NCBI RefSeq assembly: GCF_007970665.1
Contig: NZ_CP042430.1
Location: 3,038,001 to 3,102,000 of the forward strand
Origin: Baekduia soli
GTDB taxonomy: Bacteria > Actinomycetota > Thermoleophilia > Solirubrobacterales > Solirubrobacteraceae
Direction of reading: 5' to 3'
Length of the DNA: 64,000 bases
How positions within the stretch are numbered: the first letter of the stretch is position 1; each line of letters opens with the position of its first letter. Of the stretch, positions 23,570-29,256 are shown one piece after another. The translations under genes were made by a program, and so were the position numbers. A model generated the notes under the pieces. The model did not search any database. It worked only from the letters and a program-made list of their open reading frames with translations, and was not told where the DNA came from.

Positions 23570-24655
23570 ATGCCCGCCCCGGGCAGCAACGGGGAGACGG
23601 TCGTCAGCGTCGCGGTCGACACCAACGGCGCCGACCTCGGCCCCGAGGAGGTCGCCGCCGGCGCCGCCATCGCCGCCCGCCAGGGCGTGCGCGCGCTGCT
23701 CTTCGGCCCCGCCGCCCGGCTGGGGCGCATCGACACGGTCGGCGGGCTCGTCGAGGTCATCGACGCGCCGGTGTCGATCGCGAAGGTCCCCGACCCGGTG
23801 GCCGCGGCGCGCTCGACGCGCGACGCCTCCATCGTCCTCGCCGCCCGCGCCGTCGCCGAGGGCCGCGCCGACGCCCTGGTCAGCGGCGGCTCCACCGGCG
23901 CCGCCCTCGCCGCCGGGCTGCTCAACGTCAAGCGCGCGCAGGGCATCTACCGACCCGCGCTGGCGCTCCCGCTGCCCGTGCCCGGCCGCCAGCCCGTGAC
24001 GCTGCTCGACGTCGGCGCCAACACCGAGGTCCGCCCCGAGCACCTCGTCCAGTTCGCCTTCATGGGCGCCGCGCTGGCGTCCGCCGTGCTCGGCATCCGC
24101 CGCCCGCGCGTGGCGCTGCTGAGCAACGGCGAGGAGGGGACGAAGGGCACCCCGCTCGTGCAGGAGGCCCACGCGCTGCTGCTGCAGCGTGCCGCGGCCT
24201 CGCCGCTCGTCGACTTCGTCGGCAACATCGAGGGCACCACGGTGCTCTCCGGCGACGCCGACGTCATCGTGGCCGACGGCTTCACGGGCAACGTGACGCT
24301 CAAGCTCATCGAGGGCGTCTCCCAGGCCACGCTGCAGGCCGTCCGCGCGGCCGCGACGGCGTCGTCGCGCGCCAGGCTGGGCGGGCTGCTGCTGCGCCCG
24401 GCGCTGCGCGGGCTGCGCGACGACATCGATCCGGAGACCCCGGGCGGCGCCTACCTGCTCGGGCTGCGCAAGCTCGGCGTCGTGCCGCACGGGCGCTTCA
24501 CGCGTGTCGGGTTCTCCCAGGCGATCCTGCTTGCGGCGCGCGGCGTGACGAACGACGTCGTGGGCCGCACCCACGCCGCGCTGGAGGAGGCCGGGGCGCT
24601 CAAGCGATCGCCGCTGGCGTCCGATCCGGCGGCTACCGTCCCGGGGACCTCATGA
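23570..24655 (+). CDS. plsX: Phosphate acyltransferase PlsX
   Basis: 361 residues. It makes acyl-phosphate from acyl-ACP for phospholipid synthesis. Recognisable segments are DALVSGGSTGAAL, LLDVGANTEVRPEHL, SNGEEGTKG, VGNIEG and DGFTGNVTLKLIEGV. The usual N-terminal DAMGGDHAP motif is replaced by DTNGADLGP, a notable divergence. The stop overlaps acpP (ATGA), supporting the lipid role. Confidence 0.88.
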   Translation: MPAPGSNGETVVSVAVDTNGADLGPEEVAAGAAIAARQGVRALLFGPAARLGRIDTVGGLVEVIDAPVSIAKVPDPVAAARSTRDASIVLAARAVAEGRADALVSGGSTGAALAAGLLNVKRAQGIYRPALALPLPVPGRQPVTLLDVGANTEVRPEHLVQFAFMGAALASAVLGIRRPRVALLSNGEEGTKGTPLVQEAHALLLQRAAASPLVDFVGNIEGTTVLSGDADVIVADGFTGNVTLKLIEGVSQATLQAVRAAATASSRARLGGLLLRPALRGLRDDIDPETPGGAYLLGLRKLGVVPHGRFTRVGFSQAILLAARGVTNDVVGRTHAALEEAGALKRSPLASDPAATVPGTS

Positions 24656-24903
24656 CCCGCGAGGACGTCTTCTCCCTGATCCGATCCCATCTGGCCGATG
24701 AGCTGGACATCGATCCCGGGCGGATCGAGGAGGGCACGCGCTTCAAGGAGGATCTCGAGGCCGACTCGCTCGACCTGTACACGCTGGTCCAGGAGCTCGA
24801 GGACTCCTACGGCGTGAAGATGTCCGACGAGCAGGCCGCCCAGATCCTTTCGGTGGGTCAGGCGGTCGACTTCGTCCTCGCCCACGCGCCGAGCGCGCAC
24901 TGA
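24652..24903 (+). CDS. acpP: Acyl carrier protein
   Basis: 83 residues, acidic, four-helix carrier. The phosphopantetheine serine is in EADSLDLYTL (DSL motif, about residue 39). It starts at ATG 24652, overlapping plsX. It shuttles acyl chains for fatty-acid and phospholipid synthesis. Confidence 0.93.
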   Translation: MTREDVFSLIRSHLADELDIDPGRIEEGTRFKEDLEADSLDLYTLVQELEDSYGVKMSDEQAAQILSVGQAVDFVLAHAPSAH

Positions 24904-24938
24904 CGGCCCTGCAGCAGCTGCGCGACCTCCTGGACGAG

Positions 24939-25580
24939 GTGCCCGAGGCGCTCGCGCGCCAGGTCTTCACGCACGCGTCGTGGACCTCGCGCCGGGCCGA
25001 TTCCTACTCGCGCCTGGCGTTCCTGGGTGACAGCGTCCTCGGGCTGGCGATCACCGCGCACCTCTACCCGCGGCTGGAGGCCGAGCGCTATGGCGCGGGC
25101 CGCCTCACGAAGATCCGTGCCCAGACCGTGTCGGGCCCGTCCTGCCGTGCGGTCGCCGAGCGCCTCGGCGTCCCCGAGCGCCTGCGCGCCGCCGCGCCGG
25201 AGGGCGCGGAGCAGACCACGGCGCTCATGGAGACCGAGCGCGTGCTGGCCTCGATCATCGAGGCGGTCATCGGGGCCTGCTTCCTGCACGCGGGCTACGA
25301 CCGGACCGCGACCGCGGTCGTCGAGGCCTTCGCGCCCGAGCTCGAGCACGCCCTGGAGCATCCCGTCGACTACAAGTCGACGCTGCAGGAGCGCCTGGCC
25401 CAGCGCGGCGGCGTCGTGGTCTACGAGGTCACCGCCGAGCACGGCCCGCCGCACGACCGCGTCTTCGAGGTGGCCGCGCGGTTCGAGGACCGGTCGATCG
25501 GCACGGGGGCGGGGCGCTCGAAGAAGCACGCCGAGCAGGAGGCCGCTCGCGTGGCCCTCGAGTCGCTCGACGCGGACTGA
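24939..25580 (+). CDS. rnc: Ribonuclease III-like protein with degenerate catalytic site
   Basis: 213 residues from GTG 24939. Homology seems to begin earlier (TALQQLRDLLDEV), which would need the CTG at 24900, so the true start is uncertain. The RNase III domain has SRLAFLGDSVLG where ERLEFLGD is usual: both glutamates are replaced while the aspartate is kept. The second catalytic patch reads ASIIEAVIGA where AD..E..LGA is usual: Asp is replaced by Ser, Glu kept. A normal double-stranded-RNA-binding domain follows (DYKSTLQERLAQ, GAGRSKKHAEQEAA). Context acpP-rnc-smc is standard. Whether it cleaves RNA is open. Confidence 0.85.
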   Translation: MPEALARQVFTHASWTSRRADSYSRLAFLGDSVLGLAITAHLYPRLEAERYGAGRLTKIRAQTVSGPSCRAVAERLGVPERLRAAAPEGAEQTTALMETERVLASIIEAVIGACFLHAGYDRTATAVVEAFAPELEHALEHPVDYKSTLQERLAQRGGVVVYEVTAEHGPPHDRVFEVAARFEDRSIGTGAGRSKKHAEQEAARVALESLDAD

Positions 25581-25959: not shown

Positions 25960-28900
25960 ATGCACCGCGTGCATCTGAAGTCGCTGACCCTCAAGGGCTT
26001 CAAGTCCTTCCCCGACCGCACCCGGCTGGAGTTCGGCCCGGGGGTCTCGGTCATCGTCGGGCCCAACGGCTCGGGCAAGTCGAACATCACCGACGCCGTG
26101 CTGTGGGCCATGGGCGAGCAGTCGCCGCTGGCCGTCCGCGGGCAGTCCATGCAGGACGTCATCTTCGGCGGCGGCCGCGGGGTGCAGGCCCGGTCCTCGG
26201 CCGAGGTCGAGCTCGTCCTCGACAACGCCGACGGCACGGTCGACCTCCCGGTGGGCGAGATCTCCATCGTGCGCCGCCTGGACCGCAGCGGCGACGGCGA
26301 GTACCGCCTCAACGGCGCGCGCTGCCGCATGGTCGACGTCCTCGAGGTCCTGTCCGACACCGGCCTGGGCAAGGAGATGCACTCCGTCGTCTCCCAGGGC
26401 CGCGTCGAGGCCATCGTCACGTCCAAGCCCAAGGACCGCCGGCTGCTCATCGAGGAGGCCGCCGGCCTGGGCAAGCACCGCAAGCGCCGCCGGCGCGCCC
26501 AGCTCAAGCTCGAGCGCACGCAGGACAACCTGGACCGGGCGCTCGACGTCGAGCGGGAGGCGCGCTCGCGCCTGCGCCCGCTCAAGCGCCAGGCCGAGGC
26601 CGCCGAGCTGCACGAGCGCCTGGAGCGCCAGGCCGTCGAGGCGCGATGGGAGCTGGCCCGCGAGACCGTGCGCGCCCGCCGGGCCGAGCTCGCGGAGGCC
26701 GGCGCCGCGGCGGCTGCCGCCCGCGAGGCGCGCACGGAGGCCGAGGTCGAGCTGCGCGAGGTCGCCGCCCAGCGCGCGCTGGCCGAGGAGGCGCTGGCCC
26801 GGCGCTCCGAGCAGCGCGAGCAGCTGGCGCGCCGCGTGGAGCGCGCGCGGTCGGCGGCGGACCGCATCGAGCTGCGCCTGGAGCGCACGCGCGAGACCGC
26901 CGAGCAGGTCGCCGAGCGGGCCGAGAACCGCGCGCGCCAGCTCGAGGCGCTGCGCGCCCAGGCCGTGGAGGACCAGCCCGACGAGGACGGCCGCGAGCGC
27001 ATCGAGTCCCTCGAGGTGCGCCTGCGCGAGCTCGATGACGACCGCCAGGCCGCGCTCGAGCGCGAGCTCCTGGCCCTGGAGCAGCAGCGCACCGCCGCGG
27101 CGGCCCGCCTGGAGGAGCTGCGCGTGGTCGTCGAGGCCCGGCGCATCGCGCTCGGCGAGGCCGACCAGGCCTGCGAGGTCGCCCGGCAGGCGCGCCGCGC
27201 CGCCGAGGCCTCCGCAGAGTCCGCCCGGCGCGACGCGGCCCAGGTCGGCGCCGAGCTCGCGCGGGCCAACCAGTTCCTGCGCTCGCACTCCGGCGCCGGC
27301 GGTCACGGCTCGGGCGCGCGCTCGCTGAGCGACGACCTCGAGGTCGAGGCCGGGTGCGAGCTGGCGCTGTCGGCCGCGCTGGGCGCACGGCTGTCGGCCT
27401 CCGTCGTGGCCGATCGCGCCGCCGGCGCCGCGCTGCTGGACCGCGCCCGGCGCGACGGCGGCAGCGCGCTGGTGCTCGGCGACGCACCGGGCGCCGCCCC
27501 GGTCGCCACGGACGCGCCCGCCGACGGCGCCCGCCCGCTGGCCGAGCTCATCCGCGGCCCCGAGCCCGCGCTGTCGCTGGCCCGCCGGCTGCTGTCCGAC
27601 GCCTGGCTGGTCGACTCGCTGGACGCCGTGCCCGAGGGCTTCGCCGGCGTGGCGGTCACGGTGACCGGGCGTGCGTGGATCGGCGCGTCGCGCGAGCTGC
27701 AGCAGGCCGCCGAGGGCGGGGCCGAGCGCGTCCTGGCGATGCGCAACCAGCGCGACGCGCTCGTGGCCCGCAGCGAGGTCTGCGTCAAGGCCGAGCACGA
27801 GGCCGGCCGCGGCGTGGATGGCGCCACCCAGGCCGTGGGTGCCGCTGACGCCAGCCGCGACGCCGCCGAGCGCGAGCGGCGGGACGCCGAGCGCGCCTAC
27901 GCCGAGGCCAAGGAGTCCGAGCGCCAGGCCGCCTGGCTCATCGAGGAGCGCCGCAAGGCGCCTGAGCAGGGCGAGGCCGCGGTGCGCCGCGCCCAGCTCG
28001 AGGGCGAGCTGGCCGCCGAGCGCCGCGTCGCCGAGCAGGCCGCCCGCGCCCGGGCCGAGCGCGCCCGGCGCATCGCCCATCTGCAGTCCCAGCTGACCCG
28101 TGACGAGCAGCTCGGCCCGGCCGCCGGGCGCGTGGCCGACGTGCTGGCCGTCGTGCACGAGGCCGTGGTCGCGCGGATGGCCGAGATGGAGACGGCGCTG
28201 GCCGCCGACCGTGCCGAGGGCGAGGGCGTCGCTGCACGGCTGCGCACCTGTGCGTCCCAGGAGGCCGAGATCCAGCGACGCCTGCACGACCGCAACGAGG
28301 TCGTCACGCGCACGGAGGTCCGCGCCCAGCAGCTGCGCGACCAGGAGGCCGACGCCGCCGCCGAGCTCGGCGCGCTCGCCCAGGCGCTCGGCCTCGAGCC
28401 CGAGCCGCGCGAGGACCCGCTCGGGGCCGAGGAGGCCTCCGGGCTGCGCCAGCGCATCGAGCGCCTCCAGAAGCGCCGCGAGCAGCTCGGCCCGGTCAAC
28501 CCGCTGGCCAAGCAGGAGTACGACGAGGCCGTCGCCCACGTCGACGAGCTCGAGCGCCAGCGCACCGACCTCGAGACCGCGCTGCGCGAGCTGCGATCGT
28601 TCATCCGCGACACCGACCGCCAGATCCGCGAGACGTTCACCCAGACCTTCGAGGCCGCGGCCAAGAACTTCGAGGAGCTCGCCCAGACGCTGTTCCCCGG
28701 CGGCCGGGGCCGGCTGACGATCGTGCGCGACGAGACGGGCCCGCGGCCCGTGCTCGGCGGACAGTCGCCCGGCGACAACGGCGACGGCTCGGCCGACGTC
28801 GAGGCCGAGCAGGCGGCCGAGGCGGCCGCCGAGGCCGAGGCCGAGGCCGCCGAGGGCGGTCTGGACCCTGACGACGACCTCGGCGTGGAGATCGAGATCA

Positions 28901-29256
28901 CGCCCGCCGGCAAGTCGATGAAGCGCCTGACGCTGCTCTCCGGCGGCGAGAAGACGATGACCGCCATCGCCTTCCTGTTCAGCGTGTTCCTCGCCAAGCC
29001 GTGCCCGTTCTACATCCTCGACGAGGTCGAGGCCGCTCTGGACGACCTCAACATCACGCGCTACCTCGACCTGCTGCAGACGCACGCCGACCGCGCGCAG
29101 TTCATCGTCGTCACCCACCAGAAGCGCACCATGGAGGCGGCCGACACGCTGTACGGCGTGTCGATGGGCAACGACGGCGTCTCGAAGATCGTCTCGCGCA
29201 GGATGCCCAAGGAGTACGTCCAGCAGGCCGAGGAGCACGCCGCCGTCGTGGGCTGA
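25960..29256 (+). CDS. smc: Chromosome segregation ATPase SMC
   Basis: 1098 residues, slightly short for SMC. N-terminal head with VGPNGSGKSNITDAV (Walker A), coiled-coil arm from about 165 to 440, a hinge region (about 445-580), second coiled coil, and C-terminal head with LLSGGEKTMTAIAF (signature) and FYILDEVEAALDD (Walker B). The C-terminal head carries an Ala/Glu-rich insert before LGVEIEITPAGK. It condenses and aligns chromosomes with ScpAB. ATG 25960 starts at the conserved KSLTLKGFKSF; no Shine-Dalgarno is visible. Confidence 0.95.
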   Translation: MHRVHLKSLTLKGFKSFPDRTRLEFGPGVSVIVGPNGSGKSNITDAVLWAMGEQSPLAVRGQSMQDVIFGGGRGVQARSSAEVELVLDNADGTVDLPVGEISIVRRLDRSGDGEYRLNGARCRMVDVLEVLSDTGLGKEMHSVVSQGRVEAIVTSKPKDRRLLIEEAAGLGKHRKRRRRAQLKLERTQDNLDRALDVEREARSRLRPLKRQAEAAELHERLERQAVEARWELARETVRARRAELAEAGAAAAAAREARTEAEVELREVAAQRALAEEALARRSEQREQLARRVERARSAADRIELRLERTRETAEQVAERAENRARQLEALRAQAVEDQPDEDGRERIESLEVRLRELDDDRQAALERELLALEQQRTAAAARLEELRVVVEARRIALGEADQACEVARQARRAAEASAESARRDAAQVGAELARANQFLRSHSGAGGHGSGARSLSDDLEVEAGCELALSAALGARLSASVVADRAAGAALLDRARRDGGSALVLGDAPGAAPVATDAPADGARPLAELIRGPEPALSLARRLLSDAWLVDSLDAVPEGFAGVAVTVTGRAWIGASRELQQAAEGGAERVLAMRNQRDALVARSEVCVKAEHEAGRGVDGATQAVGAADASRDAAERERRDAERAYAEAKESERQAAWLIEERRKAPEQGEAAVRRAQLEGELAAERRVAEQAARARAERARRIAHLQSQLTRDEQLGPAAGRVADVLAVVHEAVVARMAEMETALAADRAEGEGVAARLRTCASQEAEIQRRLHDRNEVVTRTEVRAQQLRDQEADAAAELGALAQALGLEPEPREDPLGAEEASGLRQRIERLQKRREQLGPVNPLAKQEYDEAVAHVDELERQRTDLETALRELRSFIRDTDRQIRETFTQTFEAAAKNFEELAQTLFPGGRGRLTIVRDETGPRPVLGGQSPGDNGDGSADVEAEQAAEAAAEAEAEAAEGGLDPDDDLGVEIEITPAGKSMKRLTLLSGGEKTMTAIAFLFSVFLAKPCPFYILDEVEAALDDLNITRYLDLLQTHADRAQFIVVTHQKRTMEAADTLYGVSMGNDGVSKIVSRRMPKEYVQQAEEHAAVVG

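What the first reader, a model, noticed from the sequence alone, without database searches (positions are those of the whole stretch)
24900..25580. RNase III with an eroded catalytic site
The signature ERLEFLGD is SRLAFLGD and the second patch AD..E is AS..E, so positions equal to E. coli Glu38, Glu41 and Asp114 are changed while Asp45 and Glu117 remain. The double-stranded RNA-binding domain is normal. The protein may bind RNA without efficient cleavage, or use an altered metal site, in a core position between acpP and smc.
Basis: partly seen in the sequence, partly recalled or inferred. Interest (0 to 1): 0.55.

Follow-up and report, generated by a model that had tools for sequence, protein, structure and literature searches.

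The report
RNase III with rebuilt active site
In one order of soil bacteria the only copy of a basic RNA-cutting enzyme has lost two of its four textbook catalytic acids but never the other two, and its usual ribosomal-RNA targets are still there, so it probably still cuts RNA with an altered active site.

Summary

It is not decay of one gene. All 113 distinct sequences that I place in the order have A41 and D45, and E117 wherever readable (112 of 112); none has D114. E41 is kept in all 189 other sequences examined. On a tree built without the active-site columns E41A arose once, while D114 changed many times across the class. Position 110, Ser in canonical bacteria, is Arg/Lys in 110 of 113: the column of the catalytic lysine of eukaryotic RNase IIIs.

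The genome has one RNase III. Long helices flanking 16S and 23S rRNA, the usual RNase III substrates, are present in 20 of 20 genomes tested, with paired changes. The gene is under purifying selection and the predicted fold is a normal RNase III.

Best reading: a working RNase III with a trimmed metal site (D45, E117) and a basic residue where eukaryotes use lysine. A dsRNA-binding protein that no longer cuts is not excluded; no activity was measured. New variant of a known kind.

The parts
24900..25580 (+). rnc, the only RNase III gene of the genome; start codon uncertain (CTG 24900 overlapping the acpP stop, or GTG 24939)
   Evidence: helix 1 encoded upstream of GTG 24939 is conserved and modelled
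24945..25331 (+). RNase III catalytic domain (PF14622, residues 3-131 of the 213-aa reading)
   Evidence: 75.9 bits, cut-off 35
25008..25010 (+). Ser at the position of E. coli E38
25017..25019 (+). Ala at the position of E. coli E41 (ligand of MgA)
   Evidence: ligand role from PMC9291653
25029..25031 (+). Asp kept, E. coli D45 (ligand of MgB)
25095..25097 (+). Ala at the position of E. coli E65
25239..25241 (+). Arg at E. coli position 110, the column of the catalytic Lys of eukaryotic RNase IIIs
25251..25253 (+). Ser at the position of E. coli D114
25260..25262 (+). Glu kept, E. coli E117 (bridges MgA and MgB)
   Evidence: role from PMC9291653
25398..25400 (+). Ala at the position of E. coli Q165 (base recognition)
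25371..25568 (+). double-stranded RNA-binding domain (PF00035), intact
   Evidence: 62.8 bits, cut-off 23
24652..24903 (+). upstream neighbour acpP (named from its sequence; no family search run)
25960..29256 (+). downstream neighbour smc (named from its sequence; no family search run)

Best explanation
It is the normal, single, house-keeping RNase III of the order Solirubrobacterales, still a double-strand-specific endonuclease acting on the rRNA processing helices, but with a remodelled catalytic site. Shown: E41, D114, and in most members E65 and/or E38, are lost; D45 and E117 are invariant; a basic residue sits at position 110; the substrate helices are kept. Inferred: E117 and D45 still hold the catalytic metal(s) (in E. 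coli E117 bridges MgA and MgB, D45 binds MgB, and D114 binds no metal directly), so the net loss is one MgA ligand; Arg/Lys110, one helix turn before 114, contacts the scissile phosphate as the conserved Lys does in Dicer, Rnt1p and Dcr1, where it takes the place of the bacterial third Mg. Loss of the acids E38/E65 from the RNA-facing valley should tighten dsRNA binding, as in the engineered E. coli E38A/E65A/Q165A enzyme.
For: D45 and E117 are two of only five columns invariant over 242 distinct sequences; a protein that merely bound RNA would not need them (inference). E41A happened once on a 123-row tree made without the active-site columns and is fixed in 113 of 113. D114 is evidently dispensable: 54 Ala, 12 Asn, 2 Glu, 1 Gly against 17 Asp in 86 other Thermoleophilia with E41 intact, and Asn in 16 of 59 further loci of other classes of the phylum; Drosha's first RNase III domain also has D->N (passages of PMC5357909). 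Basic residue at 110: 110 of 113 in the order against 5 of 130 in the others; wherever 114 is Ser, 110 is Arg/Lys (103 of 103). Same column as eukaryotic catalytic Lys: K112/D116 in Entamoeba RNase III, K1806/D1810 in human Dicer (passages of PMC13334501), Drosha K aligned with our R: each four before the second Asp. E. coli E41A and D114A single mutants keep weak activity in excess Mg, whereas E117A/Q/K are dead (review table). Only one RNase III in the genome. Helices flanking 16S and 23S exceed all 20 shuffles in 20 of 20 genomes, 17 of them of this order, with changes on both sides at 7 of 26 (16S) and 5 of 21 (23S) core columns. dN/dS 0.05-0.34 in 14 pairs. Model pLDDT 95.3, Z 18.8 to E. 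coli RNase III 7r97.
Against: No activity was or could be measured. The E. coli single mutants E41A and D114A are weak and bind RNA poorly; a double mutant is not reported in what I saw. The arginine is not lysine, and coordinates of the model were not available to measure its distance to the site. The tie between 110 and 114 is loose: 6 of 9 sequences with Glu114 keep Arg110, and the three that lost it are one small clade. The rRNA helices could be kept for rRNA folding or antitermination, and RNase E/G and RNase J are present. The NCBIfam RNase III equivalog cut-off is missed (153.7 against 166.25 bits).
Confidence: 0.5

Rival explanations
1. Active RNase III, but Arg110 has no catalytic part: the enzyme simply runs a weaker two-metal site on D45 and E117, perhaps with Mn or high Mg, and Arg110 is a structural or charge-balancing change.
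For: E. coli E41A and D114A keep weak activity in excess Mg. S. meliloti RNase III, with a normal site, prefers Mn, and its E125A/Q mutants are rescued in part by Mn (passages of PMC6121014). Some other Thermoleophilia have Arg or Lys at 110 together with E41 (5 of 86), so the basic residue does not need the loss of E41.
Against: Arg/Lys110 is kept in 110 of 113 sequences at 40-90% identity, close to the invariance of D45 and E117, which a merely tolerated change would not be.
Confidence: 0.22
2. A dsRNA-binding protein that has lost cleavage: it holds or shields the rRNA helices or other dsRNA, and another nuclease cuts them.
For: Two of four catalytic carboxylates and two surface acids are gone; the changes lower negative charge in the RNA-binding valley, as expected for tighter binding (PMC9291653 on E38A/E65A). 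dsRBD intact. RNase E/G and RNase J are present to do the cutting. RNase III-like proteins without catalysis exist in eukaryotes: maize chloroplast RNC1, trypanosome KREPB4.
Against: D45 and E117 never change although nothing but metal binding is known to need both; the helices that RNase III cuts are kept; no second RNase III replaces it.
Confidence: 0.22
3. The catalytic site is completed in trans, by a second RNase III-domain subunit or by the partner monomer.
For: RNase III works as a dimer (PMC9291653).
Against: A single RNase III-domain protein in the own genome with both PF14622 and PF00636 at loose thresholds; of 61 genomes, 59 have a match over the PF00636 cut-off, none has two, and the five further weak hits (12-15 bits) are below it. 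E41, D45, D114 and E117 of one site form one cluster per subunit.
Confidence: 0.02
4. Sequencing error, pseudogene or misalignment.
For: None found for the window gene. Among relatives a few assemblies have broken rnc frames (G008, G096, L090 and an in-frame TGA in G010).
Against: 113 of 113 distinct sequences share A41; dN/dS 0.05-0.34; ungapped alignment at both patches.
Confidence: 0.01

Closest known systems
Canonical bacterial (class I) RNase III, E. coli Rnc / A. aeolicus RNase III / TIGR02191
   Same: One RIIID plus one dsRBD, same fold, single copy, FLGD core, D45 and E117; rRNA processing helices present.
   Different: E41, D114, E65 and often E38 absent; Arg/Lys at 110; scores under the NCBIfam equivalog cut-off.
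Eukaryotic RNase IIIs with a catalytic lysine (Dicer, Rnt1p, K. polysporus Dcr1, Drosha RIIIDb)
   Same: A basic residue four before the second Asp position, on the helix that also carries E117.
   Different: Arg rather than Lys in nearly all; eukaryotic enzymes keep all four acids (Drosha RIIIDa has D->N and K->H); no Dicer-type domains.
EcEEQ, the engineered 'bacterial Dicer' E. coli RNase III E38A/E65A/Q165A
   Same: The window protein has Ser, Ala and Ala at these three places; 54 of 113 members of the order lack an acid at 38 and 65 and have Ala165.
   Different: EcEEQ keeps E41, D45, D114 and E117. Ala165 is common in the phylum (10 of 30), so that part is not special.
Non-catalytic RNase III-like proteins (RNC1, KREPB4, mitoribosomal mL44)
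   Same: Catalytic acids lost; mL44 chains are among the structural matches.
   Different: D45 and E117 are both invariant here; the protein is the cell's only RNase III. That mL44 and RNC1 lack these residues is recalled, not checked.
Mini-III (MrnC)
   Same: RNase III domain.
   Different: Mini-III lacks a dsRBD (recalled); the window protein has one.

Membership tests
Canonical bacterial RNase III | RNase III domain followed by one dsRBD | tested here: met
   PF14622 75.9 bits (cut-off 35), PF00636 57.6 (27), PF00035 62.8 (23)
Canonical bacterial RNase III | NCBIfam equivalog TIGR02191 cut-off | tested here: not met
   153.7 bits against 166.25
Canonical bacterial RNase III | Signature ERLEFLGD | tested here: not met
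   SRLAFLGD; A41 in 113 of 113 of the order
Canonical bacterial RNase III | Four catalytic acids E41, D45, D114, E117 | tested here: not met
   two of four
Canonical bacterial RNase III | RNase III fold | tested here: met
   AlphaFold2 mean pLDDT 95.3; VIA-align Z 18.8, 212 residues, rmsd 4.0 to 7r97_A
Canonical bacterial RNase III | Metal-dependent cleavage of dsRNA | not testable with these tools
   needs the purified protein
Canonical bacterial RNase III | rRNA processing helices as substrate in the genome | tested here: met
   16S helix 27 of 28 pairs, 23S helix 19 of 19 in G000, both above 20 shuffles
Eukaryotic RNase III catalytic-lysine type | Basic residue four before the second catalytic Asp | tested here: met
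   Arg110 (Lys in three); as Arg, not Lys
Eukaryotic RNase III catalytic-lysine type | Conserved Asn (N1742 of human Dicer) | not tested
   column not traced
Non-catalytic RNase III-like proteins | No cleavage | not testable with these tools
   needs assay
Non-catalytic RNase III-like proteins | Loss of catalytic residues | tested here: inconclusive
   two of four lost, two invariant
Mini-III | No dsRBD | tested here: not met
   dsRBD present

The most novel reading that the evidence does not exclude
A whole bacterial order has independently reached the eukaryotic solution: an arginine (or lysine) at the position of the Dicer/Rnt1p catalytic lysine contacts the scissile phosphate and replaces the bacterial third magnesium, which made the MgA ligand E41 and then D114 unnecessary. 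Together with the natural loss of E38 and E65 this would be a native, sequence-relaxed, Dicer-like bacterial RNase III that cuts with only two catalytic carboxylates.
Probability: 0.3. Interest if true: 0.8.

Novelty: new variant of a known kind. Interest (0 to 1): 0.6.

Why it matters
RNase III is the textbook case of four-carboxylate, two-metal RNA cleavage, and eukaryotic RNase III mutations at these acids cause disease. A clade that lives with its only RNase III lacking E41 and D114, but never lacking D45 and E117, tells which ligands the chemistry needs and gives a natural test of whether a basic residue can stand in for a metal ion. It also warns that annotation by motif would call these genes dead. 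If instead the protein proves not to cut, an order that matures rRNA with intact processing helices and no RNase III activity would be just as surprising.

Tried and rejected
Shifted acids: rejected, no gaps at either patch; acidic residue E109 is common in the order (most rows) but is Gln, Gly, His, Arg or Val in some, so it is not a fixed substitute.

A second RNase III or Mini-III: none over the cut-off in the own genome or, beyond one each, in 59 of 61 relatives; two fragmented assemblies showed none. Further weak hits (G090, G092, G094; E 1e-5 to 1e-3) were not followed up. In one search, 9 of 101 relatives had no hit, and, 17 of 300 genomes had none; I put this down to incomplete assemblies but did not prove it.

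RNAduplex of whole rRNA flanks was uninformative, because such G+C-rich flanks pair everywhere. The first ungapped helix search used too short flanks: 16S of G046 and 23S of G005 and G006 did not beat the shuffles there, and 23S of G001 barely did; with longer flanks all 40 helices beat their 20 shuffles. The helix columns were laid out from the helices themselves, so the share of paired cells leans towards pairing; the paired changes are the stronger part. shuffles keep mononucleotides only; one search kept dinucleotides. 13 of the 35 genomes asked for 16S gave no match and are not in the helix test, which therefore has no genome of families f3, f4 or g24.

Group labels: 45 of the 113 'order' rows come from genome contigs by similarity and were placed by me; some bear other names in their records (Chlamydiae, Bifidobacterium breve, Bacterium HR41) but fall inside the clade where they were in the tree (L062, L065, L089). 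The 68 rows with taxonomy codes give the same result. Row L090 is frameshifted; its 114 and 117 were not counted and its Arg at 110 may be meaningless.

The E38 column was misplaced by a gap; replace it. L326 is a 14-bit fragment and was dropped (60 loci became 59, 58 of them distinct).

Structure coordinates could not be read in the Python box, so no distance from Arg110 to the site was measured.

Literature: a search for RNase III with Thermoleophilia/Solirubrobacter, with Solirubrobacterales/Conexibacter/Gaiella, for inactive or RNase III-like in bacteria, for naturally lacking catalysis and for E41A/D114A listed no paper on this variant among the rows shown; the paper on Thermoleophilia markers has no mention of ribonuclease. 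The primary mutant paper (Sun 2004) is not held; I rely on the table of a review.

Full report
What is there. The window carries rnc between acpP (24652-24903) and smc (25960-29256), all on the + strand. The protein has an RNase III domain and a dsRBD, both well over the Pfam cut-offs, but falls under the NCBIfam equivalog cut-off, 153.7 against 166.25 bits. Its signature is SRLAFLGD and its second patch LASIIEA. Alignments to solved RNase IIIs are ungapped at both. So E38, E41, D114 and also E65 of E. coli are replaced by Ser, Ala, Ser and Ala, while D45 and E117 stay.

One gene per genome. The own assembly is one contig of 5.2 Mb. It holds one match to PF14622 at E up to 10 and one to PF00636 at E up to 1. 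Of 61 near genomes, 59 have a match over the PF00636 cut-off and in none is there a second one over it.

Family survey. From 264 loci I obtained 243 distinct RNase III sequences. In the 113 that I place in the order Solirubrobacterales, position 41 is Ala in 113, 45 is Asp in 113, 117 is Glu in 112 of 112 with a letter, 114 is Ser in 103 and Glu in 9, 65 is Ala in 92 and Pro, Ile or Ser in 17 more (Glu in 4), and 38 is Glu in 52 and another residue in 61, one of them Asp. Of these rows 68 carry taxonomy codes and give the same picture: A41, D45 and E117 in 68 of 68. In the 130 others E41, D45 and E117 are present in all. A further 59 loci from other classes of the phylum keep E41, D45, E65 and E117 in all (one 14-bit fragment dropped). 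D114 is not so firm: in 86 other Thermoleophilia it is Ala in 54, Asp in 17, Asn in 12, Glu in 2, Gly in 1, and in the 59 loci it is Asn in 16 and Gly in 1.

Order of events. A tree of 123 rows, built without columns 38, 41, 45, 65, 109, 110, 114 and 117, puts the 63 rows of the order in one clade (SH-aLRT 99; quick method, LG+G4, no bootstrap). The state at 41 needs one change, at 114 at least twelve, at 110 eighteen, at 65 ten, at 38 eighteen. So D114 had become loose in the class and the phylum; loss of E41 is a single event at the base of the order, never reverted in the sample.

The gained basic residue. Position 110 is Ser in 43 of 44 canonical rows and in 58 of 58 readable loci. In the order it is Arg in 107, Lys in 3, Ser in 3. 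Every row with Ser114 has Arg or Lys110 (103 of 103); with Glu114 it is Arg in 6 and Ser in 3, the latter one small clade. PMC5357909 (passages) says that eukaryotic RNase IIIs have two further catalytic residues, an Asn and a Lys, not conserved in bacterial RNase IIIs; in the Entamoeba enzyme the Lys is K112 with D116 and E119. PMC13334501 (passages) names K1806 with D1810 and E1813 in human Dicer and its effect on catalysis. Both put the Lys four before the second Asp, as Arg110 lies four before 114, and Drosha's Lys falls in our Arg column. PMC9291653 (parts 1-3 read) reports that in E. coli E41 and E117 bind MgA, D45 and E117 bind MgB, D114 binds no metal directly, and that the Lys of yeast Rnt1p takes over the role of the bacterial third Mg. 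This is the basis for my reading that the order keeps the two essential ligands and has put a basic residue where eukaryotes have theirs.

What mutants say. The review table (PMC8708148, passages) lists E. coli E41A and D114A as weak in excess Mg and low in RNA binding, D45A as low, and E117A/Q/K as without activity. That agrees with which acids vary in nature and which do not, but it also shows that losing E41 costs activity unless something makes up for it.

Are the substrates still there? In 20 genomes with a complete 16S-23S region (17 of the order, 3 other Thermoleophilia) I looked for the best ungapped helix between the two flanks of 16S and of 23S. All 20 16S and all 20 23S helices score above the best of 20 shuffles: 16S 16.5-27.5 against shuffle maxima of 12.5-16, 23S 17-30 against 11-19.5. 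In the window's genome the 16S helix has 27 pairs in 28 and the 23S helix 19 in 19. Within the order, 7 of 26 core columns of the 16S helix and 5 of 21 of the 23S helix show standard pairs that differ on both sides. The core itself is nearly invariant, with one constant G-G mismatch. A helix kept by paired changes fits a double-strand-specific processing nuclease, though it does not prove which one; RNase E/G and RNase J are also encoded.

State of the gene. dN/dS is 0.13-0.34 for the window gene against five relatives and 0.05-0.27 in nine other pairs. The AlphaFold2 model has mean pLDDT 95.3. Its best second-look match is E. coli RNase III 7r97 with Z 18.8 over 212 residues at 4.0 A; chains of mitochondrial ribosomes (the mL44 position, a recalled name) and Dicers follow at Z 14-16.

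Verdict. I hold it most likely (0.5) that this is a working RNase III with a trimmed metal site and a catalytic basic residue, next that it works without help from Arg110 (0.22) or that it binds without cutting (0.22). By descent, domain make-up and fold it belongs to the RNase III superfamily; I do not file it as a canonical bacterial RNase III, because the signature, the four acids and the equivalog cut-off were tested and not met. I found no description of it in the searches named under Tried and rejected, which cover open-licence papers only.

Noticed in passing
window 24895-24945: rnc has no ATG/GTG/TTG that keeps its first helix; an in-frame CTG overlaps the acpP stop (CTGA). The same CTGA overlap was seen in 22 of 101 rows of the order in which acpP was recognised, beside 8 ATGA and 6 GTGA; a CTG start coupled to acpP is possible.
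   Followed up: partly
L293-L304, L308, L321, L333 and others: D114 is Asn in 16 of 59 further actinobacterial loci with E41 intact, several reading SALENVYEA, so loss of this textbook catalytic Asp is widespread in the phylum.
   Followed up: partly
L269 and L277: The distance from the 5' motif of 23S rRNA to the sarcin-ricin motif is 5046 bases in G153 and 3466 in G030 against about 2700 elsewhere: insertions in the 23S gene, perhaps introns.
   Followed up: no
L265-L284, rRNA flanks: A G-G mismatch sits at one fixed place in the 16S helix of 15 of 17 genomes of the order and is a G-C pair in the other two (G061, G064).
   Followed up: no
L062, L065, L066, L082: Records titled Chlamydiae bacterium or Bifidobacterium breve carry RNase III genes of this order, 66-67% identical to the window's: probably mislabelled metagenome bins.
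   Followed up: no
L172-L174 (genomes G029, G045, G058): A genus of the same family with 1.7-Mb genomes has a strongly diverged RNase III (41-46% identity) with Lys instead of Arg at position 110 and Pro at 65.
   Followed up: no
G010:C2:49108-49776, G008:C4, G096:C73, L090: rnc is interrupted by an in-frame TGA or split between frames in these assemblies; error or real damage not decided.
   Followed up: no
L285-L292, L343, L344 (family f23): All ten loci of this other family of the phylum have Gly in place of E38 while keeping E41, D45, E65, D114 and E117.
   Followed up: no
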